This document shows positions 60-48,928 of a stretch of DNA of 64,000 nucleotides, in pieces. How positions within the stretch are numbered: position 1 is the stretch's first letter; the number at the start of each line of letters is the position of its first letter. Under the pieces are notes generated by a model. The model was given only the letters and a program-made list of their open reading frames with translations. It was not told the DNA's origin and did not search any database. Source of the stretch: Thermothelomyces thermophilus ATCC 42464 (Eukaryota; Ascomycota; Sordariomycetes; Sordariales; Chaetomiaceae). Both the position numbers and the translations under genes were made by a program. Where the stretch lies: NCBI RefSeq assembly GCF_000226095.1, contig NC_016477.1, forward strand, positions 2,914,001 through 2,978,000, written 5' to 3'.

Positions 60-590
60 CGGCTCCTCCCTGCTTTTGCTCAGTCTTAGGTCCAAGCTGT
101 CTTTCCGGAGTAGTTCCTTCCTGACCGTGCTGTACTGAAGATATAGAAACCCAGCGAAGACCAAGAAATCATAGAAGAATATTTTTATACCGAAGTTAAG
201 GCGTATTAACGGCTCAACCCCCTATAGGGCGCCATTATCCCCAAGTTTTACGGCCTTCTACGCTACAACGGAACAAGGGCTATACTTCTCGAGTATTTGG
301 GGGGCATCTCGCTGTCCGCGCCCGAGGGCGTAACCATAACCTTGGAGGAGCTGTCAAGTTTGCTACAGCTATACTACCAAGCATTCTACGCCTTTGACGT
401 ACATCAAGATAACGCTAACTTGTCAAACTTTTAACTTGTAGATAGCAAAATAAAGATACTGGATCTCAAGAGCGCTATATTTCATTACTCCGCAGATCAA
501 AGGGCAACTTTCCTGGCGTCGAGTGTTTGCTACCTAGCTAAGCACTATCTGTCTATACAGGTATATTATCGGGATCAGGGTTCTCTAGAA
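60..590 (+). pseudogene. Protein kinase-like gene fragment, broken
   Basis: One frame reads like a fungal protein-kinase-fold gene: DRAVLKI (a VLK-type beta-3 lysine motif), EVKAY, IPKFYG, RYNGTRAILLEYLGG (hinge-like), then YAFDVHQDNANLSNF (catalytic loop with the usual H-x-D region altered) and a DLKSA metal-binding-like motif near 460. The family is common in ascomycetes and normally lacks introns. Several in-frame TAA/TAG codons fall where Gln would fit, and FYAFDV where ALHAFGV is usual suggests His to Tyr, all of the CpA-to-TpA type. The 5' end may lie outside the window. The family call is from motif order only; substrate and role are unknown. Confidence 0.6.
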
Positions 591-647
591 GCAGCTTAAT
601 CCCTGGACGGTAAAGGTCTCTGACAAGGAGGGTAACAAAGAGTATAG

Positions 648-748
648 TAACGAGGAAGAGGAGACGAGGAGGGAGAGAGGGAAGGGCCGGGGGGAAGGAG
701 AGGGAGAGGAGAGAGGGAAGGGGGAGAGGGAAGGAGACAGGGGAGTAA
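648..748 (+). repeat. Purine-rich (GA) low-complexity tract
   Basis: About 100 bases made almost wholly of G and A on the plus strand with irregular GAGG and GGGAGA units. The translated reading frames over it are low complexity and I treat them as non-coding. Confidence 0.7.
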
Positions 749-6206: not shown

Positions 6207-6368
6207 ATAGGATGTAGGGGAATCTACGCGAACCAGGACATAGGATGCACTTTAGCAAAGGGTCGATGCGCAGACAGACGCCTTGCGAGGTACACGCCCG
6301 AGAGTGCACCAGGGCCTGGTCGTCCATCTCAGTCACCCCACGGCGTATGTTTAGTAGGAGAGCCCCTG

Positions 6369-7307: not shown

Positions 7308-8959
7308 TCAGTGCATCCTGTCACCAAAGGGCAGGTCCATTACCAGCGTAGAGCCATCGACGCTGCTAGCATATCTGAGCTGTTCCGAGTCCAGAATGCT
7401 ATAGGGGGCATAAAGGACACCGTGCGTGCTGATGGCAACCGGCCCACCAAACACCGTGTGGGGTGGCGGCCCCGCTATGCTGTAGGTGGCTAGGTTGTTG
7501 AGGCCGTAGATAGCCTGGTGGTCGTGTTCCATAGCCATCGGCAGGTGTTGCGGCGGGGTGTGCATGTTTGGAAGGCCGTGGGGCAGGGGCGACATGGGAT
7601 AGGGGGCCGCTGAGTGGATGGTGCTGGTGTTGCTAGCTGTCGTGATGCTGATTGGGCTCGATGCCGGCAATGAGTGCTGTTGCGGCGGGTGCAGGAGTGT
7701 AACTCGCTTGACTTTGCAGCCCTTGCCGCGTCCCTTGATCCCCTTGTTTGCTAGGTTGTGTACCTCGATGACGTACCGCGCCATCTCCTTCTCTTCTTCG
7801 GACACCATATCCTGGTTCACCATGTTGGCTAGCTTGGCCTTGAAAGCTTCGATCTCCTTGGTATGGTAGGTATTTTGATGGTTCTATACATCGAGGTCAG
7901 TTATAGTTACTAGGTGCGGGCGCCATTAGGAGAAATATACCTTGAGATTCCCTTTTGCGGTGAAGTCCTTCTGGCAGTTTCCAAAGCGGCAGATCTACTT
8001 CGCTCTCAAATCCCGTTTGATGTGTGTACGAATGTGCGCTTTGACGTTCGACTGCTAGTAGAACCTCTTAGGGCACTGCGGGCATTTGTAAGGTATTTCT
8101 CCAGTGTGGCGGTTGATGTGTGACTATGGTAACATGTAAGACGTTGCTTGCTCTATGATATATTGGGAAGAAAGATCCTACCCTGAGGTTGGCACTTTGC
8201 GTAAAGCGACGGGGGCAGTAAGGACAGGCCTGATTGTCAGTACGATGGATCGGTCGTAAAGGGGAAGACGGTCCTTACATAAGGGCTCTCGCCAGTGTGG
8301 GATCGCTGGTGGGTTGCGAGGTTGTTCTTCTGGGCAAACGGCTTGGAGCACACATCGCAGTAAAACACCTTCTGTTTTACCTTGGCACGGCCCCTCTGAG
8401 TTTTTTTGCCCTCGCACCCTGGTTCTGCCTTGTCTGGCGCGCCGAGAATGTCACGCTTCTCCTCGATGATCCTGACGAGCGTGTCGATAGCCGTATTGAA
8501 CTGATGGATAGGAGCTCCTTGAGCCCGCTCGTTAGGGGTAACGGTCTCAGGAGTTGGCGAGTCTGAAGACGCCGATCTTACCTCGCTCTTGACGAAGGGC
8601 AAGGTATCAGCAGCCCCGGGGAGCCCTCCATCGGCACGAGGCTCCGCCGGTAGAACGCGCGGTTGCATACGCTCGAGGCACTTCTGGGACTTGAAAGGCG
8701 CATCCAGCATTAGCGGCTAGCCGTAGGGGTCGTATCCGCTGTACGAGACAGATATATAGCACTGAGGCGAGGCTGGGAAGGGCGCGGACGACACTAGGGC
8801 CGGAGTAGAGGGACCTGGAAGGAAGTGCTAAGCCGACTCTGGGCGTTAGGTATAGGCGGCGGCGGCGGTCTGGCAATTATAAGGCATCATGGCGGCGTGC
8901 TGAGGGTGAGGCCAGCGGGCCCAGCTCTCGAAGGTGGGAGGCAGATTCCCAGGGGCCAT
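7308..8959 (-). pseudogene. C2H2 zinc finger transcription factor, RIP-inactivated
   Basis: Four exons join in one frame: 8959-8279, 8229-8182, 8123-7941 and 7883-7308, about 495 codons from ATG to TGA. The three introns (49, 58 and 57 bp) keep GT and AG ends. Four fingers follow in order: YCDVCSKPF...H..H, CPYCPRRF...H..H, CPQCPKRF...H..H and CRFGNCQKDF...H..H, with all zinc ligands kept. The C-terminal NKGIKGRGKG motif and Pro/His-rich tail fit a known family of ascomycete C2H2 regulators. Expected role: nuclear DNA-binding regulator. Five in-frame stops, one TAA and four TAG, all suit Gln codons, and no frameshift is seen. Direct repeats (C) flank it. The start was chosen as the first ATG that begins the conserved-looking N terminus. 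Confidence 0.88.
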
Positions 8960-9451
8960 CTCGTACCCGGGATGAGGAGTTAGTATGAAACACAAGAAGT
9001 TCGCCCTAAGTATAAATGTAACAACTCTTAGAAGAAAGGAGCCTTGATCAAGACGACAGGACCGAGGGGCGTTGGGCTAGGGGAGAGGGCTATATCAGCC
9101 AACAGGGCGGCAGAGGTTTATGGTCCTTGGACGAAGTCAGTACTTCGGCTCGCTATATATTGCCAATCCTGAATTCCCTTGCCGGTCAAGAGCCATCCCC
9201 CTGGAAGCTAGGACACAGGCTAACGATCCCTTACCCGGAAACAAGGGAAACCGCTTAGGGCTAGCGCCGTCACCCTTGCCCCGTTGCTTTCGTTCTGGCG
9301 GGTCACATACTTCCATTGCAAAATCGTCGGTATATTTTGCTAAATAATGATTGCATTTTACAAGGACCGTGACTCCCTCCTGAGCAACTCCGACCAATCA
9401 GCTTCGTAAAGAAGCAACGGGTGGATTCGTAGATGGCAGGAGAGTTCTTGG
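8960..9451. other. No gene seen
   Basis: Former 5' flank of the C2H2 gene. An 86-codon frame on the minus strand (9,137-9,397) has no recognisable features. Confidence 0.45.
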
Positions 9452-10463: not shown

Positions 10464-11560
10464 CTAGACCTCTCTCCCAGGCTTCATTCCGAATGCTGTA
10501 AAGACAGGAAAGTACGCATGGACCTAGGGGTCCTGGAATTCTTTGCGGACCCAAGCGCATTGTACCAAGACCTTTTCCTGGCCCCAACCTAGGCCGTGCC
10601 TAAGCAAAGCCGTAGAGATAGTTTCAAGCTCTTTCGCAAAGGTCTCTAGAGACTAGAGCCTAAGCTTCCTCAGTTTGCCGTCTTTCGCCCAGCCGTTCGT
10701 AGGCTACTTCTGTTTAACAACCTCGACATTCGTAAAGCCCGCTTCAACAAGCATCTCTCGATACCAAGAGGCAAGATTGATAGGGCGGCCCATCTTGTCA
10801 GCAGCTTCGGCAAGAAGTCTTGCCCAGGTGAGCAGGTGGGAGTCACCCTTGAGACTCCTATCATCACACTTGGGCGTAAGGAGGATGTCCTTGACCTCGA
10901 AATACCCGCCGGGTTCAAGATGTCTAGCGTACGTAACGTTAGTCGAGCAATAGGAATTTATAGGGGTAATATACTAAAACGTCTGCTTGAAGATATTCGT
11001 AGGATCTTTAAAGCATCCACTTAGCATACGACCGTGGATGAAGTCAAAGGGTTTGCTCCACGTCCACTCCAATTCGACATCGTCGATCTAGAACTCGCAG
11101 AGTCGAGGCACCATTTTAGGCTAGATAGGCGAGATATCTACGCCGATCACATGCGCTTCCGGATGCTCATTAGCAAAGTCGATAGCCTATATGCCAGTGC
11201 CGGTGCCGATGTCAAGGACACGTTGAAATCGCTTTTTAGGACAGAGCAGTAGTTTTTTGTCGTATGACAATAGCTACTGCTCGTGAAGCATGTCGAGGCG
11301 CTCCTGCTCTTGCTCGTCGTTGGGCAGTGGGTACTTGTCGGGATTGTAGTATTTGCGACCTTCCTCTTCGACGACGGGTATATCGCTGGGCAATGTATAT
11401 ATCGACTGTCCATCCTAGGTCCATCATCAGTCCAGATGCTATAGGAAGGGGAAGGCGTCGTACCAAATCACCGAGTACGGAGTCCGTGTCACTGTCGCCG
11501 GACACCTGGTTTGTAACCGTTGACTCGTTGTCCTACATATCTGCTATCAGCAGAGTCGTA
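10464..11560 (-). pseudogene. LaeA-like SAM-dependent methyltransferase, RIP-inactivated
   Basis: Minus-strand translation gives the family in order: KYPLPNDEQEQERLDMLHEQ, the SAM-binding motif RVLDIGTGTG, HPEAHVIGVDISPI, DDVELEWTWSKPFDFIHGRM, HLEPGGYFEVKDI, WARLLAEAADKMGRP, and the C-terminal HAYFPVFTAFGMKP. An intron of about 57 bp with a GACTAAC branch site lies before HLEPGG; another probably near 11,450. Such enzymes are cytoplasmic or nuclear and related to the regulator LaeA; the substrate is unknown. Seven or so TAG codons interrupt it, at sites expected to be Trp (after GTGTGI; before PTNGW) or Gln (after SPI), and no TGA. Flanked by direct copies of repeat D. Confidence 0.85.
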
Positions 11561-15964: not shown

Positions 15965-15979
15965 TTAAAGGCTAGTGGT

Positions 15980-19185: not shown

Positions 19186-19213
19186 TCTCACCCAGCAATT
19201 ACCGGCATTAGAA

Positions 19214-25640: not shown

Positions 25641-25880
25641 GGAGGATTCCGACTATCAACCTGGTCGTTAACTTTCTAATAGTGTGTATAGTTTTCTGTT
25701 CAGTCCTATTCCCTGCAATTCGAATTCTTGGTTCTGCCCTAGGCGCAATGGCACGACGATATTCATTGGTGTTGGCACGGCCCGGGCTTGCTTGGCGTCT
25801 AGTCTGGCACACGGGCTCGGCACCGGCAGGGGCTTGGCATCGGACTGCTCCCGTCGTTACGCCGCCTTATATACTGCGAC

Positions 25881-26000
25881 GCTTCCCTCGTCTTTGCGCC
25901 GCCTCCCTCGTCTTTGCGCCGCCTCCCTCGTCTTTGCGTCGCCTCCCTCGTCTTTGCGTCGCCTCCCTCGTCTTTGCGCCGCCTCCCTCGTCTTTGCACT
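25881..26000 (+). repeat. 20-bp minisatellite, 6 units
   Basis: Six consecutive units of GCCTCCCTCGTCTTTGCGCC type, the first and last slightly different. Open frames through it are low complexity and not treated as genes. Confidence 0.9.
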
Positions 26001-27953: not shown

Positions 27954-28775
27954 AGAGTAGCAAGATCGGGCCAGGCCATAGGGCGGGGTGGGCCTAAGCG
28001 CACTGGCATAGAGCGGAAAGCCAGGAGACGAGGCAAAGACGGGGTACTCCCCTAGCCGAGCAACTTACAATAGTATTATGTCTTTAACTTTCCTACCTAG
28101 AGCGAGGTTGATCAGCGGATGTAGGTCGATAACTCCGTATTACGCTTAAGAGATTGAGTATTTCAAGGACTAGACTTCCGTAGAAGCAGCAACAACGGCC
28201 AAATTCATACCGCACTTATTAGACACAGCCCCAGGATAGCCGAGAACCTTGATGATTCAGGTGACGGCGGCCGAGTATCACTGGCTGCTAAGAACTGTAC
28301 ACCAAGTAGGAAATCACGCCGCTATATGCGGGATTATTATAATACGTGTTCCCTCTTTCTCTGGAGAGTACGGTCCTCTGTATACCCCTCTGACATCCTT
28401 GAGAAAGGGAAGCAGGCGTTGCAACTGCACAGATTACAGGATTCCTCTCCTGAATAGAGAAAAAGAGCGTTTCATCCGGCGCAGCAATTGCCGGCTCCTT
28501 GTCGTTTCGCTTTAGTCTCTCCGCAGTACCTAATGGCCAGTATGATTCTGAGGCTCGATTTTCTCCGTTCAACAGAATTCTGGGCTTTCTTTCACACGCT
28601 CCTGTGGTATAGTACTTTTGCCAGCTGAGGCCAGCGTGCCTCGGTCCCTGCGTGCGGCGTAATCGTTTTCCTTGCAGCTTTCCAGGTTGTCTGATTCTCT
28701 TCTAGGCTTCATCGTTATCTGCGGCTCCTTGCTCACTGCGTCAGCCATTGGCGTTACAAGTCTATAATTCCAAAC
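27954..28775. other. No supported gene
   Basis: Contains short shadow frames (28,249-28,515 plus; 28,288-28,572 minus). The last 100 bases are probably the lost first exon or promoter of the glycosyltransferase; a membrane-anchor exon expected there was not found. Confidence 0.4.
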
Positions 28776-29985
28776 TTGGAGAAGCCAAGATACACATCCG
28801 AGGATGTCACGGTGGTCATCCCGACCATCCACAATCACCCGGAGAATCTGCGCCCTTCCCTCGAGAGCATTCTAGCCTGTAATCCGGCTAAGCTAGTACT
28901 CGTGACCACATGGAACAAGCACCAGGCCCTGAGTCGTGTGGCCACAAGCTTGCAAATGCCGAATCACACGTCCCCCGTTGCCATCGAGGTGCTGTACGTT
29001 GACAAGGCAAACAAACGCCTACAAGTCTGCGAAGCACTTAAGGGAGGCCACGTCAAGACGGCTATCACGGTCATAGCTGACGACGATGTAGAGTAGCCGT
29101 CAACCCTGATGCCGTGGTTGCTGGCGCCATTCGAGGATGATAGGATGGGCGGAGTTGGGACGTGCCAGCGGGTGAAGCGTGTCGTCTGCGGGGGCGCCGC
29201 GACTCGTATATTTAACTGGCTCGGGGCCGCGTACATTGAGCGACGTAACTTTGAGATCTCAGCAACGCACAACATCGACGGCGGCACGTCATGCATGTCC
29301 GGCCGTACGGGCGCCTACCGCACCGAGATTTTGAAGAGCTACGATTTCTTAAGGAGCTTCAAGAACGAGAAATGGGGAAGGTGTAGGCTTAATGCCGACG
29401 ACGACAACTTTATAACGCGGTGGCTCGTAGCCTACCAGTGGAAAACATGGATACAGTACTAGCCTGAGTACGAGATTAAGACGACGCTCGAGAACGATAC
29501 GAAGTTCCTATACCAGTGTTTGCGCTGGGCAAGGAGCAATTAGAGGAGCAACTGGACTAGCCTAGTGCACGAGAGATACGTCTGGACGTACGTTAGCCCC
29601 CCCTTTCCCTCGCGCCATGCTAACCGACCACCAACTTTCAAGCCAACAGCCCTAGTGCACGTACGCGCTGCATATTGCCACTTTCACCTCGCTCGCCTTT
29701 GTGGTCGACCTGCTCTTGCTCTTCACGTGCTGGTGGTGTACAGAAGACTGGCAGCCTAGAAACCGGCGCATCCTACTCGGGGCAGAGGTCGCGTTCATGT
29801 TCGGCTTCACCAAAGTGGTAAAACTGGCTGGGCTGCTTCGCAGAAATCCTCGTGACATCATATTCCTGCCGGTATCCATCTTGTTTGGCTACTTCCATGG
29901 TCTGATCAAGCTCTATGCGCTATGCACACTCAAAGAGGTGAACCACCACCGAGCTCCCAGAGCCCGCCCAACACACAAGCCATGA
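28776..29985 (+). pseudogene. Cps1-like family 2 glycosyltransferase, RIP-inactivated
   Basis: Two exons, 28,776-29,591 and 29,650-29,985, with a 58-bp intron (GTTAGC to CAACAG, GCTAAC inside). Motifs: DVTVVIPTIHNHPENLRPSL (GT2 start), VIADDDVE (the nucleotide-sugar Asp site), MPWLLAPFEDDRMGGVGTCQ, NADDDNFITRWLV, LYQCLRWARSN (Q..RW processivity motif), then membrane segments (FTSLAFVVDLLLLFTCWW; IFLPVSILFGYFHGLIKLY). Such proteins are plasma-membrane polysaccharide synthases like fungal Cps1. The N-terminal membrane anchor is missing. Four TAG codons: three sit where relatives have Trp (after DDDVE, after ARSN, before CTYALH), one after WIQY. No frameshift, no TGA before the end. Confidence 0.88.
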
Positions 29986-30010
29986 TGTTCTAACTCTGAA
30001 AACAGACGTC

Positions 30011-31861: not shown

Positions 31862-32952
31862 ATGGCCGTGAGGCAACACCACCTACCGACAAGTCTACCA
31901 GCCCACGATGCCTAAATACACGGCAGTGGGCCCTCCCCGCTCGAAACGCTACCGCAGTCATACAACTCGGGCTCAGCATCAGGACCGGTGGAGCCGTCAC
32001 CAACGTCCGGCCTTGCTTGGTCCGTCTCGCACCGCAGCTTGAGCCATGGCCTCCCACCGCTGCAGCAGTACGCAGGTCTAGGGCGCGAGCGGAGCGGGAG
32101 ACCTGTACTATTTGGGCCTCCATTCGCAGCTCCACTTCCGGCCATTCAACCGTTCGCTACATCTACGGTCTTAGAGACTAGAGGCAGGGCTAGGAATTTG
32201 CCTATCATCAAATGCCAGCCGGTTCTGACCATCACATCGAGCCGCGGGAAGGAAATTGTGGTCCCGGTCGATGTACGTCGGGGATCTAAAGCCGCGGACG
32301 ACAAGCGGCGTGGTAACGCAGCGGCCTTAGCAAGATTCCGAAAGCGGAAGAAGGAGAGGGAGAGATCGCAGCAGGAGGAACTACAAAAGCTGGAGAACGC
32401 GAACCGGGAGCTTGAGAGCAGGAATAAGGAGCTTGCCAAGCGCTGCCAGGAGCTTGAGGCCTAGCGCGACTTTTACTGGAACGACCGAAACCGCCTGCGG
32501 GATATCGTATCCCAGCTGCCCGGTGGGAAAGAATGGGGCGAGCGAGGGCCAACAAGCCCTATCTCGAGGAGCGCAGGAGCGCCGTTTGTGCCGAACAGGA
32601 GTACGTTGCTCGCTCAGCAGCCGCCTCGGCCGCCTCCCCACCTCCCTTCACAATCCCAACACCATCCACATCCGTTTCCACAAGCGCTTGCCAACGCGCT
32701 CTCCTACTCGCACCTGCCCCCGAGCTCCTATGCCGATACGTCTACGCTGAACCCCCGGCGAGGCTGAGAAGGACAGATTCGGAGCTCCAGCTCCCTACAA
32801 GCTCCTATAGCCTGATTACGCCTACGCCATTGCCACCGACCACCAGCGCCGTCCCACCGCCACCTCTTCCTGCTGCTTCCTTTGTTATCCCGCCCTCACC
32901 GTACGTCGCGCCGCCTACTGCTAAATGGGCGACTACCACCGCTGCGATTTAA
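31862..32952 (+). pseudogene. bZIP transcription factor, RIP-inactivated
   Basis: From ATG 31,862 the frame gives a Ser/Pro-rich N terminus (SGLAWSVSHRSLSHGLPPL), the conserved NLPIIKCQPVLTITSSRGKE and VPVDVRRGSKAADDKRRG, the basic region RGNAAALARFRKRKKERERS and a leucine-zipper-like helix (LQKLENANRELESRNKELAK...LEA) followed by RDFYWNDRNRLRDIV, then a Pro-rich tail (EPPARLRRTDSE, LPTSSYSL). The expected N-x-x-x-A-x-x-x-x-F-R signature of fungal bZIP is close: N..A.ARFRKR. TAA and TAG codons fall at Gln-like sites (after HDA; after ELEA) and one frame change lies between about 32,530 and 32,740. Expected role: nuclear DNA-binding dimer. Confidence 0.88.
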
Positions 32953-33514: not shown

Positions 33515-34507
33515 CTAAGCGACGGAACGTTCCTCTTCAAAGCTGCCACTGCCCGCTCGCTTCCGCTTGCGACTCCGTTCCACCAAAGGGCCCCAGAAAT
33601 AGATACTATACGGTTCCACAAGCTCGGGGAGCAGGGCCCTAACTAACCGCTCTCGTAAGCCAAGTATTGGAAAGACCTTAACTTTTCTCACCGAGATGTC
33701 CATTCCGGACTTGCTGTCTTTAGAGTCCGGGCCTTCGTATGGAAACATGAAGCGTCTGAGGAATGTCGCTATCACGACGGCGGTGTATACGACGAAGTTC
33801 GCGCTCTCGCCCTCGCCCTGGTGGGTAATGATTTGCCCGGTAACATCGTAGAACGGGGTGTCGGCATTCGTGTGAGCCACCGGCCGCTGGAAGAGCGGGG
33901 CTGGCGTGAAGACGGGGGGCGTCAATGACGTTTCCTTGTAGAAGTGCGCTTGCGCCATGGCGAGCAGAGTCGCAACAATGTGAGGATCGCGGTCGGCATC
34001 TGCAGGGGCGACCAATTTCGACCGCAGCCGCTCCCTAGGGACATACGCCAGAACCGACGCGCTTAAGATGGTCGAGGCAGAGCCGTCGGTGCTGCTGCTC
34101 GTCCATAGAGACGAAACGTAAACCGCTTTATTGAAGACTCTTTCCCCAAAGTAGAGCTTCAGTCTTGCATCAGTCTGGGGCTTGTGCAATGTAGCAGGAA
34201 AGAAGGTCGCCATAACATGCTCCATCGCCTCTAAGGCTCTCTCAGGCAGGGTGTCCCACGATAAAAGCGTATCCAGGTTCAATATCAGCGCTTTAGCCAT
34301 TTCGGATGGCTTGGGCGGTACGCTTAGTTTCTGCTCGAGGAACGGCCGCGTGATAGCAGGCTGCTCCCAGAAGCGTGCGCCAAGCACCCGAGAATGGTTA
34401 TAGGTCCAGTAGGGCGGTAGAACGAAGAGACGAGGCTCCCGGCGTATTATGTCGGCGAGCGAGCCGGGTGCGGCCAGTGTAGTAACCGTTGAACGTTGTT
34501 CGGGCAT
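33515..34507 (-). CDS. Intact 330-aa ascomycete protein of unknown function
   Basis: A clean single-exon frame of 331 codons with GC-rich codon use and no TAA/TAG interruption. The open frame begins 26 codons further upstream, but only with TTG; the ATG at 34,507 (MPEQRSTV, context GCAAAG) is the first credible start. Blocks such as FVLPPYWTYNHSRVLGARFW, LDTLLSWDTLPERALEAMEH, YFGERVFNKAVYVSS and VAPADADRDPHIVATLLAMA recall a family of uncharacterised ascomycete proteins; I know of no function for it. No signal peptide or membrane segment; the C terminus is basic (RSRKRKR). It is the longest intact gene of the window, between a broken bZIP gene and non-coding DNA. Confidence 0.75.
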   Translation of the reverse strand: MPEQRSTVTTLAAPGSLADIIRREPRLFVLPPYWTYNHSRVLGARFWEQPAITRPFLEQKLSVPPKPSEMAKALILNLDTLLSWDTLPERALEAMEHVMATFFPATLHKPQTDARLKLYFGERVFNKAVYVSSLWTSSSTDGSASTILSASVLAYVPRERLRSKLVAPADADRDPHIVATLLAMAQAHFYKETSLTPPVFTPAPLFQRPVAHTNADTPFYDVTGQIITHQGEGESANFVVYTAVVIATFLRRFMFPYEGPDSKDSKSGMDISVRKVKVFPILGLRERLVRALLPELVEPYSIYFWGPLVERSRKRKRAGSGSFEEERSVA

Positions 34508-35774
34508 CTTTGCGTGTTTCAGTTGTAGGCTCGCTCTGGACAACAGTCCGCGTCGTGTCGATGGATGCGATGTAAATGTAGACAAAGGGACGGCACTGGC
34601 AGACGATATAAGGGTTCATGACACCTTTTGGAGTGAGACTAGAGGAATATCTTGGGAGGGTTGTCGCTCATGTACACATGGCTGGGGGCGGCCCAGCCAC
34701 CTGCAGGGAGGTCACGACGGCTAGGGGGAGGTATATTATTTGAGAGGGGCGTGAGGGTTCCCGAATGGCGCCCACACAGTTCTGCGTGCTCCGATCCCCT
34801 AACCTCTGGCCTCAGGGTTCTAGGCAAGCCCCCTTCTTCAGGCTTAACGCCATGGTTGCCGTGCACGCAGCTGATCGACACCACCTGTTAACACAAAATT
34901 GCCGCTTCGAACGCCTCAGTGTGAGCTGTGTTCCGTCCCTTGCCACGGCTATCCATCCGCAACCTGGCTGTATCGTTCTGTTCCTCCCTATGGCTGTTGT
35001 TCTGTGGCTCCATGCTAATAACCAAAAACCCATCCTCACTCCGAAACGTTTTCATCTCACTAAAATTTAACGTCGTCCGGCAAAGATCTGCCAACCCATG
35101 CCCCTTCGCTTGGTTTGCACGAGCCTTGGGATGTATACCTTAATGCCTTGATGCCTTAATAACTGAGCTGCTAGCAGGGTATGATCCACCCCGTGCAAGG
35201 CCCCTGGCTTTGGATGCATGTGGCAAGCATCGATACACCCGGGCGTGCCCAGATATAGGGCGTGGCACCATTGGTATTGTCACTCCTGTGGTTAAGAGGA
35301 GCTGGCCTCTCCGGCTCTACAGGCGGCTTGCGAGGGCTAAGCCGATACGACGATGAGCCTCGGTCAGGGGTGATCCAACCGGGAGAGCCCGCAAAGGAAG
35401 GTCGCAACGCGGGCCCTAACAGGGGGAGGGTGTGAGGCAAACTCGACATAGCCTCGATATGACCTGGCGGCTCGCGAGGGCTCAGCCGTAGGATGAAGGG
35501 GCTGACGACGGGCAGATTAGGGTTGCGATTCGTGGCTCTAACAGCATGCTGCGGAAGCCGCCTTTTCTGGCGTGAAGCAACGCTGTATGATGGGGTTACA
35601 TTGACAAGGAGGCGGACGCGGCCCCTAGGAATGCCGACGGCACAAGGTTAGTGTTTACGTATGCGGCAGCTCGGTAAGGGGCCCTCTACCTTGCGGTTAG
35701 TAATTACGGCTGCATAGACAACGAAGAGGAAGGAGCCCGGTCCATGCAGCTACTACAGCGGCTGAGCCAGCCAG
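34508..35774. other. No supported gene
   Basis: Promoter side of the 330-aa gene followed by unremarkable DNA. Open frames of 60-101 codons overlap on both strands (34,639-35,143) and show nothing recognisable. Confidence 0.4.
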
Positions 35775-36648: not shown

Positions 36649-38020
36649 CTACTTCCGTTTTGAAATCTTCGCCGACGTCCTGCGGACCTTGGCTGGCGGC
36701 TGAGCCTCTTTATCCTCGCTCTCTTCTTCCTCTTCGTCCTCCTCTACGTCGTCGTAGTCGACCTTGTCCTTATCGAGTGATTCTGCGTCCGCTAACTCCT
36801 CCTCTATGTCCCCCTTAAATTCCTCCTCCGACTCTTCCTCGGAATCTGAGATTACCGCTGTCCCGGCAGGGAAGTCGTTATCGTCGTCTACAACGCCCCC
36901 GGCGGCCGTCCTATTGGTGAGAGCGCCCTTGCCGAGGCTCTCCTGGCCCTCGACGTAGACAATCCTAGGCTCGTCCGCGTCTTCCTCCTCCTCCTTGCTC
37001 GACTCTTCCTCCTCCCCGAGGCGACTCTGGCTAGAGCCTGCCGCTTTGATGGACTTTCGGTACTTCATCTGTGTATATAGTATGTCCAGCTTCCCCTTGA
37101 GCGCTAACAAACTGGACAAGCCCCGCGAGCGCTCCTCTAAAACGCGGCTGAGCTCGCCTAGCCGCGCGACAAGGTCTAGCTGCGAGACCAGCGCCCTGCC
37201 ATGTGCTACCAGCGTCTACTGCATCTACCTCATGAGCCCAAAGGCGCGGCCCGGCCGGCGGTGCATACGAGCCGAGAGCTTGGAGAGGAGGATGCCGGCT
37301 AGCGAGGAATCTATACGGTTGATGGTGTTTTCTATGACTTTGACATTGGTCGTCTGAAGGCAAGATTCGAGTAGGTCGGCGTCGTCTGTTCGAAGCGCTT
37401 GGTTTAGGATGGTGCCGAGCGAGGTCGCGCTGATTGGGGCCGACGGGCGCTGCTGTATCTAGAGCCGAGAATTCTAGGCGGCTGTTGCTTGGGCAGCGAA
37501 GGAAGCAGAAACATCGACAGTCGAGTTGCCCCGGACGAGGTCGCCAAATGTTAGTAATGTCGGCTCGCCGTCTGAGGCCTCCCCTCCATCCTGCATTACG
37601 GCGTCTGCGTCTGCGGCATCTTGACTTAGCTTTGACCTCGATGTATCTGACGATTTCTTTTTTTGATTTGCTGTCTTCTGTTCGCTCTCGCTCGCTCCCT
37701 CCTCGTTGTCGGAGATATCGTACTAGCTGGCGGATTCCTCCTCGATGTCGACTGTATCCGCGGAGTGTTTCGAGAGTGGCTTTGGTATCAAGCCAGTCGA
37801 GACCGATGTCCTGGTTTCGTTGATCTGCGCTTTTACGGGAACCTTTGCGCTCTGCTTTACAACTGGCTTCGCGATTGTCGCCGCGGATTTCCGCTTGGTC
37901 GATATATTTGCGATTTCGGTTTTTTTTCCCCTGGCAATGTCAAACGCTGACAAATAGGGATTCTGTACCAATTGACAACAGGTAGCTTCTAGCTGCTGAT
38001 AAGACGCTACAGGCCTGAAT
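36649..38020 (-). pseudogene. UTP5: UTP5 (WDR43-type) C-terminal copy, RIP-inactivated
   Basis: One minus frame of about 455 codons: LFRPVASYQQLE, NPYLSAFDIARGKKTE, a Ser/Lys-rich linker, then the Utp12 domain (EPTLLTFGDLVRG, SLGTILNQALRTDDADLLES, INRIDSSLAGILLSKLSARM, HRRPGRAFGLM, TLVAHGRALVSQ, LLALKGKLDILYTQMKYRKS) and a long acidic tail ending in a basic SKRK. UTP5 is a U3 snoRNP (t-UTP) subunit acting in nucleolar 18S pre-rRNA processing and is normally an essential single-copy gene, so this is probably a dead duplicate. The N-terminal WD40 propeller is absent; a pogo transposon lies 520 bp upstream. Five TAG codons, two of them at Trp sites of the GLM-W-MQ-W-TLVAHG motif. Confidence 0.88.
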
Positions 38021-38537
38021 AGATCGAATGTACTTAACTAATACAGCAAAAAATTTCAAAAACTACAGCTAAACTTTTTTTTCGAGCCGTTTGCATTTTG
38101 GCGCTACCAAGCCTTGATAATCCTATCTTTCAGCTATAGATTGAATGTAGCTTATAAGCGTTGTCCTACCTCGCCAGCTTGTGGCTGAACTAAGATCATA
38201 TGATAGAGCCCCGGCTATAACTTGTCGCTTCGGCAGATAGTAAAACGCCTAGTAGGGCGAGTACAACAGTGATTAGCCAACTTGTAAGAGCTCCTGCATC
38301 CGAAGCTACGTCCCTGATTAGGCTTCTTACCCTCGTCGGGGTACAAGCTCTCTCTTGTCGAAGCTTTGTACCCTAACTTATGAAGCTTTCAGGTTGGGAG
38401 TGAGACACACTCGGTAGTAATGGTGCTTTGGACTTGAGAAACTCTAGGCCGTCCTGTAGAGTAATTCGGTTGCAACAAGGCTAACGTTCCAAGTTTAGAT
38501 AATGTTGAACAGAATTACCGTACAATATAATACAATG
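38021..38537. other. No gene seen
   Basis: Spacer between the UTP5 remnant and the transposon. A T-rich run occurs near 38,070. No trace of WD40 coding sequence could be read. Confidence 0.5.
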
Positions 38538-38539
38538 TA

Positions 38540-38581
38540 ACGTACATTATCAGCGAGTGGATCATATCAGCGAGTGGATCA
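38540..38581 (+). repeat. Left terminal inverted repeat (42 bp)
   Basis: Contains two tandem copies of the 17-mer TATCAGCGAGTGGATCA, a likely pair of transposase-binding sites. Matches the right end base for base. Confidence 0.95.
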
Positions 38582-38639
38582 ATTTTGTACGCGACGCGTC
38601 TCTTTACACCTAACACTAATTTCCTCCACTATACCTAAC

Positions 38640-40319
38640 ATGTCTGCAATTCCAGTCGAGGCTAAAGTGATTCTTGCACTTGAGGCTCTTAAAAAAGAAC
38701 CTAAGCTAAGCCTCCGGGCTGCAGCAAAGATCTATTCTGTGCCTTATACTACCCTCTATCGCCGGCGTACTGGCCGGCCTGCACGGCGCGATACAACGCC
38801 CAATTCAAAGAACCTTACCCAATCTGAGGAGGAGGCTATTGTTCAATATATTATTGAGCTATCTACGCGAGCTTTTCCACCAAGATTGAGTGGTGTGGAA
38901 GATATGGCCAACCAACTACTACGTGTACGCGACGCGCCTCCTGTCGGCAGGCTCTGGGCGCATCGATTCGTCAAACGCCAGCCAGAGCTCTGTACGCGTT
39001 ATACGCGTAGGTACGACTACCAGAGAGCCAAGTGCGAGGATCCAAAGGTCATTGGCGAGTGGTTTGCCCTCGTATGGAATACTAAGGCCAAGTACGGCAT
39101 TGTGGATGATGATATCTATAACTTCGACGAGACTGGGTTTATGATGGGCATCATCTTCGCGGGCATGGTAGTTACGACCTCGGATGGCCGTAGTAAGGCA
39201 AAGCTGGCCCAGCCTGGCAACCGGGAATGGGCAACGGTAATCCAGGGAGTCAATGCCCTTGGCTGGGCTATCCCCCCATTCATCATCTTGGCCGCGCAGT
39301 ACTACCTCGCCAACTGGTATACCGAGTGCAACCTGCCAGCCGACTGGTGCATCGCAACCACTGATAATGGCTGGACCACCAATACCGTAGGCCTGGATTG
39401 GATCAAGCACTTCGACTTCTATACAGCACCTCGTACGAAAGGCAAATACCGGTTGTTGATCCTCGACAGCCACAAGAGCCACTACTCGACCGAATTCGAG
39501 CTCCATTGCCAGCAGAACAACATTATCACGCTCTGCATGCCTCCACATTCCTCCCACCTCCTCCAGCCACTCGATGTTGGCTGCTTTGGGCCACTGAAGC
39601 AGGCGTACGGTCGCCAGGTTGAGGACTTGATTCGCGCGTATATCAACCACGTGAGCAAGCTCGAGTTCCTCTGTTCCTTTCGCGAGGCCTTTTTTGCCTC
39701 TATGACGGAGAGGAATATCCAGGGTGGCTTTGCAGGGGCTGGCCTTGTGCCGTACGATCCGGAGAGGGTGCTTTCTAAGCTAGATATCAAGCTTCGTACG
39801 CCAACACCCCCTACCTCACGGCCTAGCACTGCATAACCCTGGGTCTTCCAGACACCCCACAACCCTCGGGAAGCCGAGTTACAGTCAACGCTCATCAAGA
39901 CTCGCATTGCCAACCATTAAAATAGCTCTCCGACTTCGATGTTAGCTGCTGTAGACCAGCTTACCAAAGGTACGATAGCTGTAATGCACTAGGTGGCCCT
40001 TCTTCAGGCAGAGGTATCTTCGCTCCGCAAGGCCAACGAGGCACTAAGCAAGCGCCGGAGAGCCAAAAAAACACGTGTGCGGCTTGGGGGATTACTGTCT
40101 GTACAGGATGCATCTGATCTACTAGATCAGAAGGCCGTAGGTGGGGAGGGAGAGCAAGAAACGCAGCCGGGTGGTAGTAGTGCAGGGGAGGGTCGTACGA
40201 AGGTTCGGTGCTGTGGTGTGTGCGGCAAGCCTGGCTATAATGCCCGCACTTGCTAGGAGGTTGCAGAATCATCTGATTCAGCTGTTTCTGATGTAATTAT
40301 AGTTGGTTCCTAGTGTTGA
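38640..40319 (+). pseudogene. Pogo-type transposase, broken by five TAA/TAG codons
   Basis: The first ATG after the left repeat (38,640, MSAIPVEAK) opens a frame of 398 codons to TAA 39,834; the same frame then runs to TGA 40,317-40,319 across TAA, TAG, TAG and TAG, a total of about 559 codons, the usual family length. Residues 1-55 form the psq/CENP-B-like DNA-binding region (SLRAAAKIYSVPYTTLYRR). The catalytic triad is D163 (YNFDETGF), D276 (LLILDSHKSH) and D312 (HLLQPLDVGCFGPLK). A coiled stretch (VSSLRKANEALSKRRRAKK) and a C-terminal zinc knuckle CGVCGKPGYNARTC follow; the knuckle has Tyr where His is usual, again a C-to-T change in CpA. Every stop suits a Gln codon and no frameshift is present. 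Confidence 0.93.
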
Positions 40320-40360
40320 TGTGTTGCCATTAAGGATAGTGTTTATAGGGTAGTAGAAAC

Positions 40361-40402
40361 TGATCCACTCGCTGATATGATCCACTCGCTGATAATGTAC
40401 GT
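40361..40402 (-). repeat. Right terminal inverted repeat (42 bp)
   Basis: Exact reverse complement of 38,540-38,581, with the same duplicated 17-mer; followed by TA. Confidence 0.95.
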
Positions 40403-40404
40403 TA

Positions 40405-42087
40405 GTGACTGTTATATATAACGTACGACAAAACGTCGGACAACAACGGGCACTGGCATCTTACGGGGCTCCGTCACGGACAATAAAAAGCCTTAGCCTA
40501 GCTGTGCTTGCCAGGAGTAACTTATAGAAATACTTCGTACGCGTTATTCTCGTGTCTTAGACACTCTGTACCGGTTATTAGGAAGTTCCGTAAATAATCC
40601 AATCGCCTAAATGCTGAATTGCGAACTTCTCCTTCACTTCTGCTACTCTAGAATAGCTTTCTCTGATCGCAATGCTTTGTTGACGGTATTACGCGTTGCA
40701 TCCGGCGATTGCCGTTTTTCTCTTGTCGGGTCGGGTGGGATGTTACTCCATTCCGAGCCGTGTACTGTACGTTGTACAGCATGCATTCCTTGGGGATTTT
40801 GTTATGTTGTGTGAGCTCGTGCCAAGGGCCTGATTCAATTTAGCACGCGCGTCCAAATTTTCTGCGTTCGAGTGACTTCTGGCCTGTGGATACCAGTAGG
40901 TTCGTCCCGAACGTAGCGCATTAGGGCGCCTTGGCAGCCAGCTTCATTTCTTTGCCTACCACCACCACTACAGCAACAACGTTAGTATTGCCAGTCAGGA
41001 ATCTAGGCGCGGGAGAGCTCGCGGGAGCAGGGCGTACGTAGGGAGGAGAGTAACAGACTAGGCAGGCCAGGCGAATTGAGCTTACAGAGCGAAATCAGCG
41101 ATTTGAAGCAATTTGAGGCCATTTGAGCGCTCAATTGCACTAGGCCTTGTTGTACAGATAGATGTCGCCAGTTGTGTCCCGATTGATGTCGATAGTTACA
41201 TCTAGATTGATGGGGTAGGGAGCGCGGGAGCGTCAGGGTAAGGGATATTACTAGGGTAGTACAGGGTCGTAGTGCTAAATGTCTTCGGTGATGTGAGTTG
41301 GTGAGTCCTGTAGACATCTTGCGCGGTCGGGCTGCTACTGCACCAATTATACTTGCAGATCCTGTTATAGAGAACCTGACCTATCGACCGGACAGAGGCG
41401 TGCCAGGCTCCTGCATATTTTGACGGAGTTCTCCACAGCTATTCCGCAAGTATGATTGGTACAGTCTTTGCCGGCTATCTAGGTTAGCGTAGTTCGGGAT
41501 CGAATACCTAGTAAGATTCACGGGTACAATATTAGCGTTGTTTTACGGTCACCCCTTTGTCCTTCTGCCTTTATCCCGCTTTGCCTTTGTCCTCCTCCAC
41601 CTTTGTCCTCCTCCGCCTTTGTCCTCCTCCGCCTTTGTCCTCCTCCGCCTTTGTCCTCCTCCGCCTTTGTCCTCCTCTGCCTTTGTCCTCCTCTGCCTTT
41701 GTCCTCTTGCCAAGCCTGGCTCTGCTATTACCCGTGATCTATCAAGATGAACTAGCACCAAGGATCGGGATTGCTACCAACGGAATTATAGGTGTCTAGG
41801 TCCCGAGGACCCTGTTACCTTTTTCGCTTCCAAGGGTACGCAAGCTACGCCCCACAAAACCCATTGTATAGGCACACCTATAACGTTATTTTTCACCATG
41901 GCAGCTGTTATATCGAACCGTCTGAGGTTGACCCGCTCGGCGCTCTCGGGCTGCTCGCTCTACGGATGCACTTTGAAGTAGGGTAAAGCCCTCGAACCCG
42001 GGCGCAAAGAAGGCAACCATCCACCTTGTATGACTCTACATTTTCAATCGATCTAGCTTTCTCTGGCTTCCTCCTCTTCATCGTCCG
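40405..42087. other. No supported gene; one minisatellite
   Basis: AT-leaning spacer right of the transposon with short conflicting frames (40,611-40,814 plus; 41,003-41,317 minus) and a 16-bp minisatellite. I could not find the missing UTP5 N terminus here either. Confidence 0.45.
41583..41706 (+). repeat. 16-bp minisatellite, about 8 units
   Basis: Tandem units of GCCTTTGTCCTCCTCC with one A and a few T variants. Pyrimidine-rich on the plus strand. Confidence 0.9.
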
Positions 42088-44914: not shown

Positions 44915-45917
44915 ATGTCCAAATCGACGCCTAAAACCGTTAACCGCCGCCTAACACTAGGCATCCACTCTCGACAGTCAACTATTATTTACAATCGACC
45001 AGCGTCCAAATTCATCACTATGCAAAACCAGCCATTGTCTTACATTGACCTTGAAACGTTTGTGAGAAATGAGCGACGCCATCCCGAGCCGACTTGTCGT
45101 TATATAGCTATTCATCGGGATGTCTATCTAAGCATTCCATTTGATCAATTGATCACCCTTCCACTTTTCACGACACAAACCGACTTGCGACGCTTAGCTC
45201 CTAAGGAGGTTGAGCTTCTCGCTAAAGTAACTTCTGCAAGGCACAAAGGAGACTTCTTGTCAGCGCTCGCCAGATACTGCAAGGGTCTTGACACTCTCTA
45301 ACAAGCTGCGGCTCTATTCGGTGATACTAAACTACCTTACCCTTATCATCGTTTCTTAGACTAACATCACAAATGCAGAAGGCGCGATACATATTATAGA
45401 ATCAGCCCCATTCCCTGCCGAAACGACCGCTAAGGAAAGGGAAGACTAGGTCTCGGTATCCCGTGCGTAGCTACATTGGTTGCGACATTACATCAGCAAG
45501 GCGAAAGATGGGGATACACACCCTCATAACTCATCAGTTGGTGAAGATGAACGTACGACGATCGGGGCCGATATAGGCAAGGTAGAGGGCCTTGTCGGCC
45601 CCTTTCTACGTACTGGCTTCAAGACAAGTTAGATAAGGAAGAAAGAGGGACGGAGTCCGTTGACCGAAGCTATCCGCCTGCATCCGGCTTCGGCAAAGGG
45701 CAAGGATCTTAGGCTCGAAATTTGGATCGGGGCTTGCGCTGGCCGAACGATATCACAACTGATATCGACTGGTGACGACATCCGGGACGTTCTCGGTGAT
45801 TACCTTCAGACGGCGATAGAATCCAGCGAGACCAAACCTTCGGTGCAATTGTCCTGGATTGATATGGATTGCAGGCTAGATCTAATGCTGGGTTTTGAAG
45901 AAGGCTGCAGAATATAG
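44915..45917 (+). pseudogene. Unknown two-exon gene, broken
   Basis: ATG 44,915 (MSKSTPKTVNRRLTLGIHSR) opens a coding-like frame: PLSYIDLETFVRNERRHPEP, DVYLSIPFDQLITLPLFTTQ, LRRLAPKEVELLAKVTSARH, SALARYCKGLDTL, TAA, then QAAALF. An intron from GTGATACT to AAATGCAG (about 45,321-45,378, with GACTAAC) links to GAIHIIESAPFPAETTAKE, WLRHYISKAKDGD, DIGKVEGLVGPFLRTGFKTS, TEAIRLHPASAKGKDLRLEI and CRLDLMLGFEEGC before TAG. All interruptions are TAA or TAG. No domain was recognised; composition and splice signals are the reason to list it. Confidence 0.45.
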
Positions 45918-47581
45918 CAATTGTATTTCCCTGAGCACTCTTCGTCAACAAATTGACTGCTGCTACGTCAGAAACACCGTACTGCCCTCCGGAAATGAGG
46001 ATCTTGTCAGGGGTCATTCCTTGGTACGCTGAGGCATGTAGACTATACATGCGATGTACTTAGGTATCAAAATTCTATACACGTGGGTCCTCTCACTGAA
46101 CCGTCTAGAATATAGGACCTATATACGGTAACTTTATGATGAGCAAGCCTTGATCTCGGCCTCCCTTGTTCCTTTGTCTTGTGATAGTTATACCCGTTTT
46201 CTAGGACCTGCCGTTTTAAGCCTCCGGGTATCGAGGCAGCTAACTCCTGCGGCATTGCTGCAGATGGCCAGGGTGGGGACGTGGTCTCGCACTTGTGCCT
46301 GGAATAGCTTACACACGACGTGAAACCCTGCGACGTAAGGTGTTGCCGCGTATAGGGCGAGGGCACGGCAAGATCGTGAGAGCTCCTACGTTGACGGGTC
46401 TCAAAGACGAGCGGTCACAAGAGCTGTAGCCGACAAAGAAGGCAAGTCTGGAAGGTCTCAAGACGGCTACGCCACAAGGACGTAGGGCTTGGTGGGTGAG
46501 CTGCCAGGCGAGAGCGTGTGCGGTTCGAGAAATGCCGAGAGGGGGAAGACAAGGGATGGAGAGGAGAAACGCACGCAGCGTGGCGAGACGAGTGGCAGCG
46601 TAGTAGACATAGAAGAGTAAATGGAGGAGCGCAAGGCCGAGTGGGATTATTAAGGACAAGGCGAAGTCAGTGGTTACGCATTGAGACCTGGTTAGATACC
46701 GTGGTAGTATATGGAAGTCCGTGCACAGCTCACACGGTTTCCCGGGTAATGTGGTTTGTTTACTACCCCTGATATTTTATAGACGCCAGATCAAAGAATC
46801 CAGGTAGCACATCCAACAGCAACGGCACAGACGGGCGAGGTACTCATGAAGCTCGCGACATAGCTTCGCCACGTCGTCGAGCTCGTTATCCCTTAGATGC
46901 GCTGTCCACCTTACTTCAACGCCCATTAATACAAAAAAGATGGAAAGGGTACGCTAGACGCCTTCGCCGGCAGTAGCTACTAATGGAATCCCAGGACTGG
47001 CCGCTAGGCCGAACGCGTGGGGTTCGTTGTTCTGTCCAGTTAGAGCTACAAGCTATTTCATAGCACGAGATTGAGTAACAGAAGCAAACCGGTCACCTAG
47101 TGTCTAAACAGTCTGCCATTATGAGTGAGAACATGCCTTGTTTGCCTCCGAGCTACAGGTGACGCCAAACCGTCGAGTCCACCTGTTAGGGTGCACTAGG
47201 GCCACGCGGCGCCTTGAGGTGCCATAGGAGAGTCTGGGCCGGATGTGCATAGGACAGACGATGAGGTTCGGAGCCGGAGCCGGAGTAAGGACGTTGTTGT
47301 GGTTCGTAAGTGGCCACATTGGACTTGTCGTACGGGCGTGGAACGGGAGCGACACTCCATGGCGTGCTCTTCTCGGAAGCCCTAGCTTTGCCATCCTCAA
47401 ATTTTCGCGGGGTGAGACAACCAAAATCTGTTCTGAAACTGGAAACGGCATGACTCAACAGGGCCCAGAGGCTGCGGTTCCATGACGCTTGCCTCGGATG
47501 CGCGTTCTACTTCCTAACTCGGGCGATGACGCAGATAACGATGATGGATACAATAATGATAGTGACAACGGCAACTGAAAC
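45918..47581. other. No supported gene; repeat E copy
   Basis: Contains repeat E (46,675-46,782) and competing frames such as 46,309-46,659 minus (hydrophobic N terminus, no ATG) and 47,119-47,458 minus. None resembles a known protein. Confidence 0.4.
46675..46782 (+). repeat. Dispersed repeat E, copy 2
   Basis: Shorter copy of 19,027-19,185, lacking its middle 50 bases. Ends at GTTTACTACCCCTGATATTT. Confidence 0.7.
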
Positions 47582-48928
47582 GTGAATGTGCCGAACAATG
47601 TCAAACGTCAGAGCAACCTGGCGGTAGACGATGGGCCACATTGTTGTTGGTGGATTGGTGGGTGTCGATGCCTCGGGATGCAATGCGTCAACGCCAGCCC
47701 TGTAGGCTCTGCCTTAAGCTCTCGGACAAACAGGGAGACAGGTGTTTTATCTGCTTGGCGTCTGGTTCGCGTACTATTGGTCAAGCACCACGCGTTGAGC
47801 TTCTATAAGGTTCTGCACAGACGACCGGACGCTTACAGTGATGATACAGCGTACCGCACGTATACACTTGACCACTCCCACCGTTGGGAACACCTGGCCG
47901 CCGACATGGACGATCGACCGCGCGCCGGCGCTACAAAACGGCCGATGCCAGCTCTCTGTCTCGCCACGGCCCATAAGATAGACGAGGACGTGAAGCGCAG
48001 ACGACTGACGCTCGGAGATTAGTGCTCTCCGGGCCAAGAAAGGACTACCAGGCGCGTCAGTTTGCGGGATGTCCAGGTGCTACTGCAAAAGGAAAACCCC
48101 GACAGTAGCCGACAGACACTGTACGCCGATATTCTGGCCCACTAGGTTGTCAATCACGCGGCGGCGGCGACTAGCGACCGGCTACTGCCGGAATACGTCG
48201 ACTGCGATAAGATGTTTTAGGACCTCGTCGCCCGTAGCGCAGAACACGGCAATGCCGAGGTTCCGACGCAAGTTCTGGCGGCGCACGTGGAGCCGCCGGC
48301 CGGCGGTGGTCCTGGGATGGGCGACGACGGCTTAGGCGACGGCGTCGCCTCGGGTCGGTACGACATCGGATCGGCCGGTGATCTGAGGGTTCTCCTTCTC
48401 CACCTTGACAAGTGCGTAGCTACCCGATAGGACGGGAGCGCGAATCTTCCCTTGCTCGAGCTCGTTGTTCGGGATGTCTCCTCGGCCGCAACAGCCGAGA
48501 CAAGCTCTGTAGCTGACATCAACGATGCTGACAACACCACCGTACTCGAGCGGGAGGGGGGAGATCATACGACGACCGAGGCGAGCCCTGCTGCTAAGAC
48601 CAGCGATGCGGGCAACAATATTATGTCTGAGAGAGAGAGTGAAGACCTTGCAACGGCCGGTACGAGCCTTGCAGCTAGCATCAGCAATGCAGTCGACGCC
48701 ACCATGTCCGAGAAGGCGGGGGAAGATAATGCAATGACTGAGATGAGCCCTACAGCCAAGGCCAGCGGTATGGATAACACCATCATATTTGAGCGGGAGG
48801 GTACAGGTTATCGCCAGAGCGATGGTTGCCCGGAATGCTTCAGAGATGAACCGTTTGCGACTCGGCGGGCCGTGCCCATGCAAAACGGAGAACCGGCTCC
48901 CGTTAGGGAACCACGGCCAGGATGGTAG
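47582..48928 (+). pseudogene. Unknown gene with a 27-aa tandem repeat, broken
   Basis: A single plus frame of about 448 codons, interrupted by four TAG codons only. Parts: a Cys/Trp-containing N terminus (CCWWIGGCRCLGMQC), HRWEHLAADMDDRPR, HKIDEDVKRRRLTLGD, RRVSLRDVQVLLQKENPDSS, TLYADILAH, VVNHAAAATSDRLLPEYVD, a Gly/Asp-rich spacer, then three 27-residue repeats (DADNTTVLEREGGDHTT..., DAGNNIMSERESEDLAT..., NAVDATMSEKAGEDNAM...) plus a partial fourth, and a Cys-containing tail. Nothing recognised. The first ATG inside the frame could not be fixed; the listed start is only the beginning of the open frame. Confidence 0.4.
48524..48811 (+). repeat. 81-bp in-frame tandem repeat
   Basis: Three full units (48,524; 48,605; 48,686) and a partial one from 48,767. 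The period is 27 codons, so copy number changes would keep the frame of the host gene. Units are about half identical at the protein level. Confidence 0.75.

What the first reader, a model, noticed from the sequence alone, without database searches (positions are those of the whole stretch)
60..48928. In-frame stops in host genes are almost only TAA/TAG at Gln or Trp sites
In nine well-recognised coding remnants (C2H2 factor, LaeA-like 1, BCS1-like, DUF3435, CK1, glycosyltransferase, bZIP, UTP5, pogo transposase) I counted roughly 40 internal stops and no TGA in the parts where the frame is secure. CpA-to-TpA mutation turns CAA/CAG into TAA/TAG and, on the other strand, TGG into TAG, but cannot make TGA. 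Introns, zinc ligands and Walker motifs survive and frameshifts are rare. This is light RIP acting on gene-rich DNA of balanced composition, weaker than in the retroelement block. Base: stop codons seen in sequence; RIP dinucleotide preference is established knowledge of Pezizomycotina.
Basis: partly seen in the sequence, partly recalled or inferred. Interest (0 to 1): 0.7.

Follow-up and report, generated by a model that had tools for sequence, protein, structure and literature searches.

The report
Spare gene copies disabled by RIP
In this stretch of a mould's chromosome, several second copies of ordinary genes were disabled by the fungus's own repeat-targeted mutation system, which turned glutamine and tryptophan codons into stop codons; the process is known, but several of the copies are old and diverged and include a ribosome-assembly gene of which the genome seems to have one other copy.

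Summary
Ten have relatives elsewhere in the same 38.7 Mb genome. In seven aligned genes TGG became TAG at 14 of 46 sites and TGA at none; C-to-T change is one-sided at CpA (167 against 59 in reverse) and CpG (193 against 102), even at CpC and CpT. TAG and TAA also rose in the two unused frames, so the process ignores frame. Integrase domains across the genome show the same spectrum: 132 TAG, 30 TAA, 1 TGA. RIP is the supported cause.

Corrections: these are second copies. In BCS1, UTP5, GT and C2H2 most divergence from the other copy is old silent change under selection, not RIP. No 1-kb window of 1-51 kb passes stringent RIP indices. RIP is patchy: a 366-codon frame and 431 codons of the pogo element have no stop. 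How RIP reached genes lacking a close duplicate, and whether the block is foreign, is open.

The parts
3..599 (+). kinase-like remnant; TAG 87, 111, 144, 225; TAA 207, 432; TAA 597 shared with relative
   Evidence: 87% DNA identity to C6:1871719-1872335; C>T/G>A 60, reverse 8, transversions 14; label rests on a Pfam WaaY hit below its cut-off on the relative
7320..8962 (-). C2H2 zinc-finger remnant with introns; TAA 8848; TAG 8830, 8719, 8126, 8057, 7997
   Evidence: relative C2:4448833-4449543, open in the aligned exons; no Pfam hit on the relative read through its introns; the C2H2 label is read from the sequence
10473..11372 (-). LaeA-like methyltransferase remnant; TAG 11276, 11189, 11123 (unaligned gap), 11090, 10706, 10655, 10526
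20276..21955 (+). BCS1-like AAA ATPase remnant, one frame open but for TAG 20519, 20627, 21158, 21926; GPPGTGKT kept
   Evidence: relative C2:4193400-4194700, open in the aligned stretches; Pfam BCS1_N 3.1e-51 on the relative
23919..25604 (+). DUF3435 (PF11917) remnant; TAG 24592, 25260, 25512; 25602 ambiguous
   Evidence: Pfam 3.5e-20 on 24675-25260; best DUF3435 match in the genome; partial relatives C6:1872930-1873327 and C7:3481570-3481941
26696..27953 (+). casein kinase 1-like remnant; TAG 26804, 26964, 27501, 27516, 27699
   Evidence: phmmer 1.2e-59 to casein kinase-1 2csn, which has Gln at 27699
28704..29991 (+). family-2-like glycosyltransferase remnant; TAG 29094, 29460, 29541, 29653
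   Evidence: relative C1:175564-176864, open in the aligned exons; 0 gaps in 898 bp; Pfam Glyco_tranf_2_3 5.7e-30 on the relative
31916..32740 (+). bZIP remnant; TAG 32462; apparent frameshift near 32750
   Evidence: translation only; no DNA relative at 1e-10; label from the sequence
33515..34615 (-). unbroken 366-codon frame; no stop although it has 14 CAR/TGG codons
   Evidence: relative C4:141036-142154, 45-51% aa identity; no Pfam hit
36649..37908 (-). UTP5 (Utp12-domain) remnant; TAG 37725 (unaligned gap), 37476, 37461, 37227, 37218; TAG 36651 shared terminator
   Evidence: only DNA match C7:3825118-3826362, open; that copy matches PDB 6rxt chain UE at 1.2e-148
38521..40417 (.). pogo-like element with inverted ends; frame 38541-39833 open; TAA 39834 shared with relative; TAA 39918, TAG 39990
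   Evidence: inverted repeat 38525-38585 / 40357-40417, 88.5%; relatives on C3 carry more stops
45174..45932 (+). unnamed remnant; TAG 45195, 45447, 45468, 45630, 45915; TAA 45228
   Evidence: relative C5:4025230-4026023, also broken
51001..64000 (.). AT-rich, strongly RIPped block
   Evidence: GC 0.345, TpA/ApT 1.58, (CpA+TpG)/(ApC+GpT) 0.49

Best explanation
The stops were made by repeat-induced point mutation: C-to-T change, chiefly at CpA, turned CAG/CAA into TAG/TAA on the coding strand and, acting on the other strand, TGG into TAG. Shown here: the stop spectrum, the CpA asymmetry against relatives, its indifference to reading frame, and the same spectrum in retroelement domains of this genome. 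Inferred: that it acted in the sexual cycle through the RIP machinery. The hit genes are second copies of genes found elsewhere: old and diverged for BCS1, UTP5, GT and C2H2, younger for others. Since the other copies of those four are only about 69-78% identical, RIP most likely reached them from the many short repeats between the genes rather than through those copies; that step is not shown.
For: 49 internal stops, 44 TAG/5 TAA/0 TGA. In 7 of the 11 remnants, aligned codon by codon: TGG to TAG 14 of 46, to TGA 0 of 46; forward/reverse CpA 167/59 (P 4e-13), CpG 193/102 (P 1e-7), CpC 104/102, CpT 123/120; CpA forward exceeds reverse in each of the 7 genes. Off-frame stops in the same segments, relative to window: TAG 20 to 56, TAA 18 to 49, TGA 77 to 64. 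Stop-making CpA changed at 27/123, other nonsynonymous CpA at 54/355, synonymous at 86/372: no sign that stops were avoided. Control: two open BCS1-like genes compared with each other give CpA 12/13; window BCS1 against the second of them again 22/10. 98 integrase-domain matches in the genome: 132 TAG, 30 TAA, 1 TGA. A solo LTR family (window plus 26 of the 36 places listed) varies mostly at CpA: 199 of 286 minor transition alleles. Seven pairs of repeats inside this part of C6: CpA 13.9%, CpG 13.2%, CpC 7.6%, CpT 6.5% changed.
Against: The CpG excess in the genes is nearly as large as the CpA excess, whereas in the LTR family CpG is a small part (33 of 286), so a second process such as methyl-CpG decay or a shift in codon use probably adds to it. 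CK1, left out, is one-sided in every context (CpA 28/10, CpG 12/10, CpC 10/6, CpT 18/10). In the 45-kb remnant the coding-strand C>T kind shows no excess (5 vs 6 reverse). In the BCS1 control CpC was 43/28, so single pairs are noisy. Block CpA is not depleted against 12 other loci that I chose (P 0.26), although TpA is raised (P 7e-6), and the lack of coding constraint could add to that. Stops lie somewhat farther from repeats than random positions: median 877 vs 560 bp, 21 of 38 vs 71% within 1 kb. A 366-codon frame and the pogo frame escaped. TAA is scarcer than the share of CAA predicts (5 of 47, P 0.049).
Confidence: 0.9

Rival explanations
1. Ordinary pseudogene decay without context preference.
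For: The remnants differ from their relatives by many transversions as well.
Against: No TGA among 49; CpC and CpT symmetric; almost no frameshifts. In four genes the differences are mostly old changes at third codon positions.
Confidence: 0.03
2. The genes are alive: UAG is changed to UGG by A-to-I mRNA editing in sexual tissue, as in Fusarium and Neurospora.
For: 44 of 49 stops are TAG and 14 of 33 stand where the relative has Trp; PMC4817773 (abstract and passages seen) reports 69 further genes of this kind in F. graminearum.
Against: TAG and TAA rose in the unused frames as well; 5 TAA; at Gln sites editing would not restore the residue; CpA change is not lower at stop-making sites.
Confidence: 0.02
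3. Deamination of methylated cytosine in silent chromatin, without RIP recognition of repeats.
For: CpG asymmetry 193/102, and CpG as high as CpA in block repeats.
Against: CpA is as strongly one-sided, and TGG to TAG is 14 against 0 for TGG to TGA; the retroelements of the genome have the same stop spectrum.
Confidence: 0.08
4. A different genetic code, or stops that are really in introns.
For: Some stops near these genes are intronic and shared with the relative.
Against: Those were left out; the stops lie in exons aligned to relatives, and TAG stands at both Gln and Trp sites.
Confidence: 0.01

Closest known systems
RIP in single-copy genes next to repeats, Leptosphaeria maculans AvrLm6 region (PMC2973834; passages seen)
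   Same: CpA/TpG to TpA changes, 4-6 stops in RIP alleles of AvrLm6, which Southern blots suggest is single copy; explained there as leakage from adjacent repeats
   Different: There unmutated alleles are known and a gradient was seen; here only diverged relatives exist and no distance effect was found
Derelict, RIPped Starship elements (PMC11623301, PMC12257634; passages seen)
   Same: DNA with genes and a DUF3435 gene, carrying RIP
   Different: No element ends sought, no second element, no presence/absence data here; RIP is light
RIP-inactivated extra copies of a housekeeping gene (histone H3 in a hAT element, Pseudocercospora; PMC6710886, abstract seen)
   Same: Extra copies of a housekeeping gene dead by RIP, original kept
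   Different: There hundreds of copies amplified by a transposon; here one diverged copy of each gene
Genome-wide RIP in Thermothelomyces thermophila (PMC7882544; passages seen)
   Same: A passage places T. thermophila among genomes in which RIP makes up more than 10%
   Different: Index-based; by its thresholds the 1-51 kb part of this window would not be flagged

Membership tests
RIP | C-to-T transitions preferring CpA | tested here: met
   CpA 167/59 against CpC 104/102 and CpT 123/120; CpG also one-sided
RIP | Either strand can be hit | tested here: met
   C>T at CpA and G>A at TpG on the coding strand both occur in all 7 genes; the C>T kind exceeds its reverse in 6 of 7
RIP | Substrate was duplicated in the genome | tested here: inconclusive
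   Kinase-like copy 87% identical to another place; for BCS1, UTP5, GT, C2H2 the best copies found are about 69-78% identical
RIP | Acts premeiotically and needs RID/DIM-2 (recalled) | not tested
   no crosses possible; RID/DIM-2 genes not searched for
RIP | Genome otherwise carries RIP | tested here: met
   51-64 kb, composite index 1.09; integrase stops 132/30/1
RIP leakage | Mutations concentrate near a repeat and decline with distance | tested here: inconclusive
   38 of 49 stops examined; not nearer to repeats than random positions, all within 1.84 kb; gradient not modelled
Starship | DUF3435 captain | tested here: met
   PF11917, broken by 3 TAG
Starship | Captain first at the 5' end, element ends and target site (recalled) | not tested
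   no boundary search made
Starship | Presence/absence between strains | not testable with these tools
   one genome held, no relatives
A-to-I edited pseudogenes | In-frame UAG that editing turns into UGG, gene otherwise kept | tested here: not met
   5 TAA; TAG and TAA rise off-frame as well; no RNA data

The most novel reading that the evidence does not exclude
The block is foreign DNA: BCS1, UTP5, GT and C2H2 arrived together from one related fungus, perhaps with a Starship. They came in already too different from the resident genes to trigger RIP directly and were disabled later, as repeats gathered between them. Supporting: silent transversion change, which RIP cannot make, is alike in the four genes (35/99, 64/184, 40/157, 36/115 four-fold sites; P 0.24) although their partners lie on three chromosomes; position-2 to four-fold ratio 0.07-0.21 shows selection for most of that time; the UTP5 remnant has one DNA match in the genome, and it split from it at roughly 0.7 of the distance to the PDB UTP5 (my arithmetic, clock assumed). 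Ancient functional paralogues are not excluded, and near-saturation could also make the four values alike.
Probability: 0.35. Interest if true: 0.55.

Novelty: new member of a known kind. Interest (0 to 1): 0.36.

Why it matters
It shows RIP damage in DNA of normal composition that index scans would not flag, measured against relatives and with a control for reading frame. If the copies are foreign, the block would be a case of transferred genes too diverged for RIP at arrival and lost to it later, a testable route by which RIP limits gene gain.

Tried and rejected
RIP indices as the main test: weak here, since CpA is at background and the composite index of the block lies near zero (-0.23 to 0.02 by 10-kb pieces, pooled other loci -0.26). 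Rfam: no match in the window. Pfam on relatives read through their introns found nothing for C2H2 and CK1. A first LTR alignment mixed orientations and was discarded, redone. In one search four TGA in the window BCS1 row (21595-21742), and the stops in the window CK1 row, come from tblastx matches in another frame; the BCS1 frame is open there. Of the CK1 comparisons, window against C7 aligned 0 bases and C2 against C7 only 78, so they say nothing. One search used 7 of 11 remnants: CK1, DUF3435, bZIP and pogo were left out because relatives were short, broken, absent or (pogo) more mutated than the window copy; the 45-kb remnant was kept although its relative is broken too. In one search, the matches 11581-11429 and 26899-27018 were dropped as intronic or out of frame, and L030's minus-strand match as the wrong strand. 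One search used 38 of 49 stops (kinase-like, pogo and three others left out; one CK1 stop entered 3 bases off). The flanks of the block could be sampled only as eight 250-base pieces (GC 0.46 to 0.62), so block length and any centromere link are unknown. Papers: the listings show no title about this locus; PMC5445492 was looked into and not used. The species (Thermothelomyces/Myceliophthora thermophila) is my recollection from genome size and contig number, and so is the organism of PDB 6rxt (Chaetomium thermophilum); neither comes from a call.
Full report
Setting. The window is C6:2914001-2978000 of a 38.74 Mb, seven-contig fungal genome. The left 51 kb have GC about 0.54; the right 13 kb are AT-rich with indices typical of strong RIP.

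Counting the stops. Exons were taken from tblastx alignments to relatives in the same genome, or from translation with a PDB relative (CK1) or alone (bZIP), and every stop in frame was listed. Eleven remnants hold 49 internal stops: 44 TAG, 5 TAA, 0 TGA. Stops shared with the relative, intronic stops and two TGA at likely natural ends were not counted. Two of the 49 lie in unaligned gaps and four rest on translation read by eye.

Against chance. From the relatives' codons, single changes without context would give 20-27% TGA, so zero is unlikely (P 7e-4 to 5e-7 by model and count). A test free of codon usage is Trp: TGG can become TAG (a CpA site on the other strand) or TGA (a CpC site). It is TAG at 14 of 46 and TGA at none (P 1.2e-4).

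Context. Over 7 of the 11 remnants, sites where the relative has C and the window T were compared with the reverse. CpA 167 against 59 and CpG 193 against 102 are one-sided; CpC 104/102 and CpT 123/120 are not. Without the kinase-like copy CpA is 136/58 and CpG 177/102. CpA by gene: kinase-like 31/1, C2H2 21/9, LaeA-like 18/9, BCS1 32/10, GT 29/14, UTP5 20/6, 45-kb 16/10. Two open BCS1-like genes compared with each other show no CpA asymmetry (12/13; CpC 43/28), while the window copy against the second gene does (22/10; CpC 30/29). CK1, not among the seven, is one-sided in all contexts. TAG and TAA also rise in the two unused frames, 20 to 56 and 18 to 49, while TGA falls from 77 to 64. The mutations therefore took no notice of the reading frame. 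In UTP5 the changes are mostly G-to-A on the coding strand (16/49 against 4/57), as a single RIP episode might leave (inference).

Calibration in this genome. Of 98 integrase-domain matches, 58 carry stops: 132 TAG, 30 TAA, 1 TGA. In 27 copies of an LTR family 199 of 286 minor transition alleles are at CpA, with 25 transversion alleles. The window genes share this stop spectrum but have more CpG change.

What the genes are. BCS1, UTP5, GT and C2H2 have a relative on another chromosome, open in the aligned exons, at about 69-78% DNA identity. Their differences fall mostly at third codon positions. Four-fold transversion divergence, which RIP cannot produce, is 0.36-0.61, and position-2 change is 0.07-0.21 of it. 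They were thus under selection for most of their separation. The kinase-like remnant (0.06), the LaeA-like pair (0.11), CK1 (0.19) and the 45-kb remnant (0.05) have younger relatives. A search for the Utp12 domain finds four places: the window, C7 (the UTP5 relative) and two long open frames on C1 and C2 that the UTP5 DNA did not match. Against the PDB UTP5, of 389 columns 218 are alike in all three, 59 shared by window and resident copy, 41 by resident and PDB, 32 by window and PDB, and 39 differ in all; assuming a clock, the two copies parted at about 0.7 of the depth of the PDB split. This rests on one gene and includes RIP changes.

How RIP reached them. The present relatives are probably too different to trigger classical RIP, though PMC4858203 (abstract and passages) shows that interspersed homology of 36% can suffice in Neurospora. 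The block holds many short repeats shared with C6:2.846-2.904 Mb and with itself, and seven such pairs show light change at CpA and CpG. Leakage is described in L. maculans, and that paper cites leakage of at least 930 bp in N. crassa (PMC2973834, passages); it was not seen in Zymoseptoria (PMC10294615, passages). Here each of 38 stops examined lies within 1.84 kb of a repeat, yet the stops are if anything farther from repeats than random positions. Leakage is plausible and unproven.

Patchiness. The 366-codon frame at 33515-34615 has 14 CAR/TGG codons and no stop, and the first 431 codons of the pogo element have 25 and none. At the Trp rate of 14 in 46 both would be unexpected; the pogo element may have come later.

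Verdict. The mechanism is known; the age of the diverged copies is the part worth a comparative study.

Noticed in passing
whole genome, e.g. G000:C1:500965-501261: 30 of the 98 integrase-domain matches lie in open frames of 1264-1287 codons with no stop inside the match, beside old copies with many TAG: a recent burst that RIP seems not to have touched, which suggests that RIP has not acted since.
   Followed up: no
23919-25604: The DUF3435 gene is the best match of this family in the genome; all five matches are on C6, three of them pieces of this gene, one at 2826043, about 112 kb upstream, one at 3817740.
   Followed up: partly
3-619 and 23919-24331: Both have relatives side by side at C6:1.872-1.873 Mb, although they are about 23 kb apart in the window.
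   Followed up: no
33515-34615: Unbroken 366-codon frame with a 45-51% identical relative on C4 and no Pfam match.
   Followed up: partly
38521-40417: Near-complete pogo-like element with inverted ends; less mutated than its relatives on C3.
   Followed up: partly
41552-41707, 25875-25997, 5078-5256: Short tandem or periodic repeats.
   Followed up: no
window genes: CpG change is nearly as one-sided as CpA, most of all in BCS1 (53 vs 11); the LTR calibration does not explain it.
   Followed up: partly
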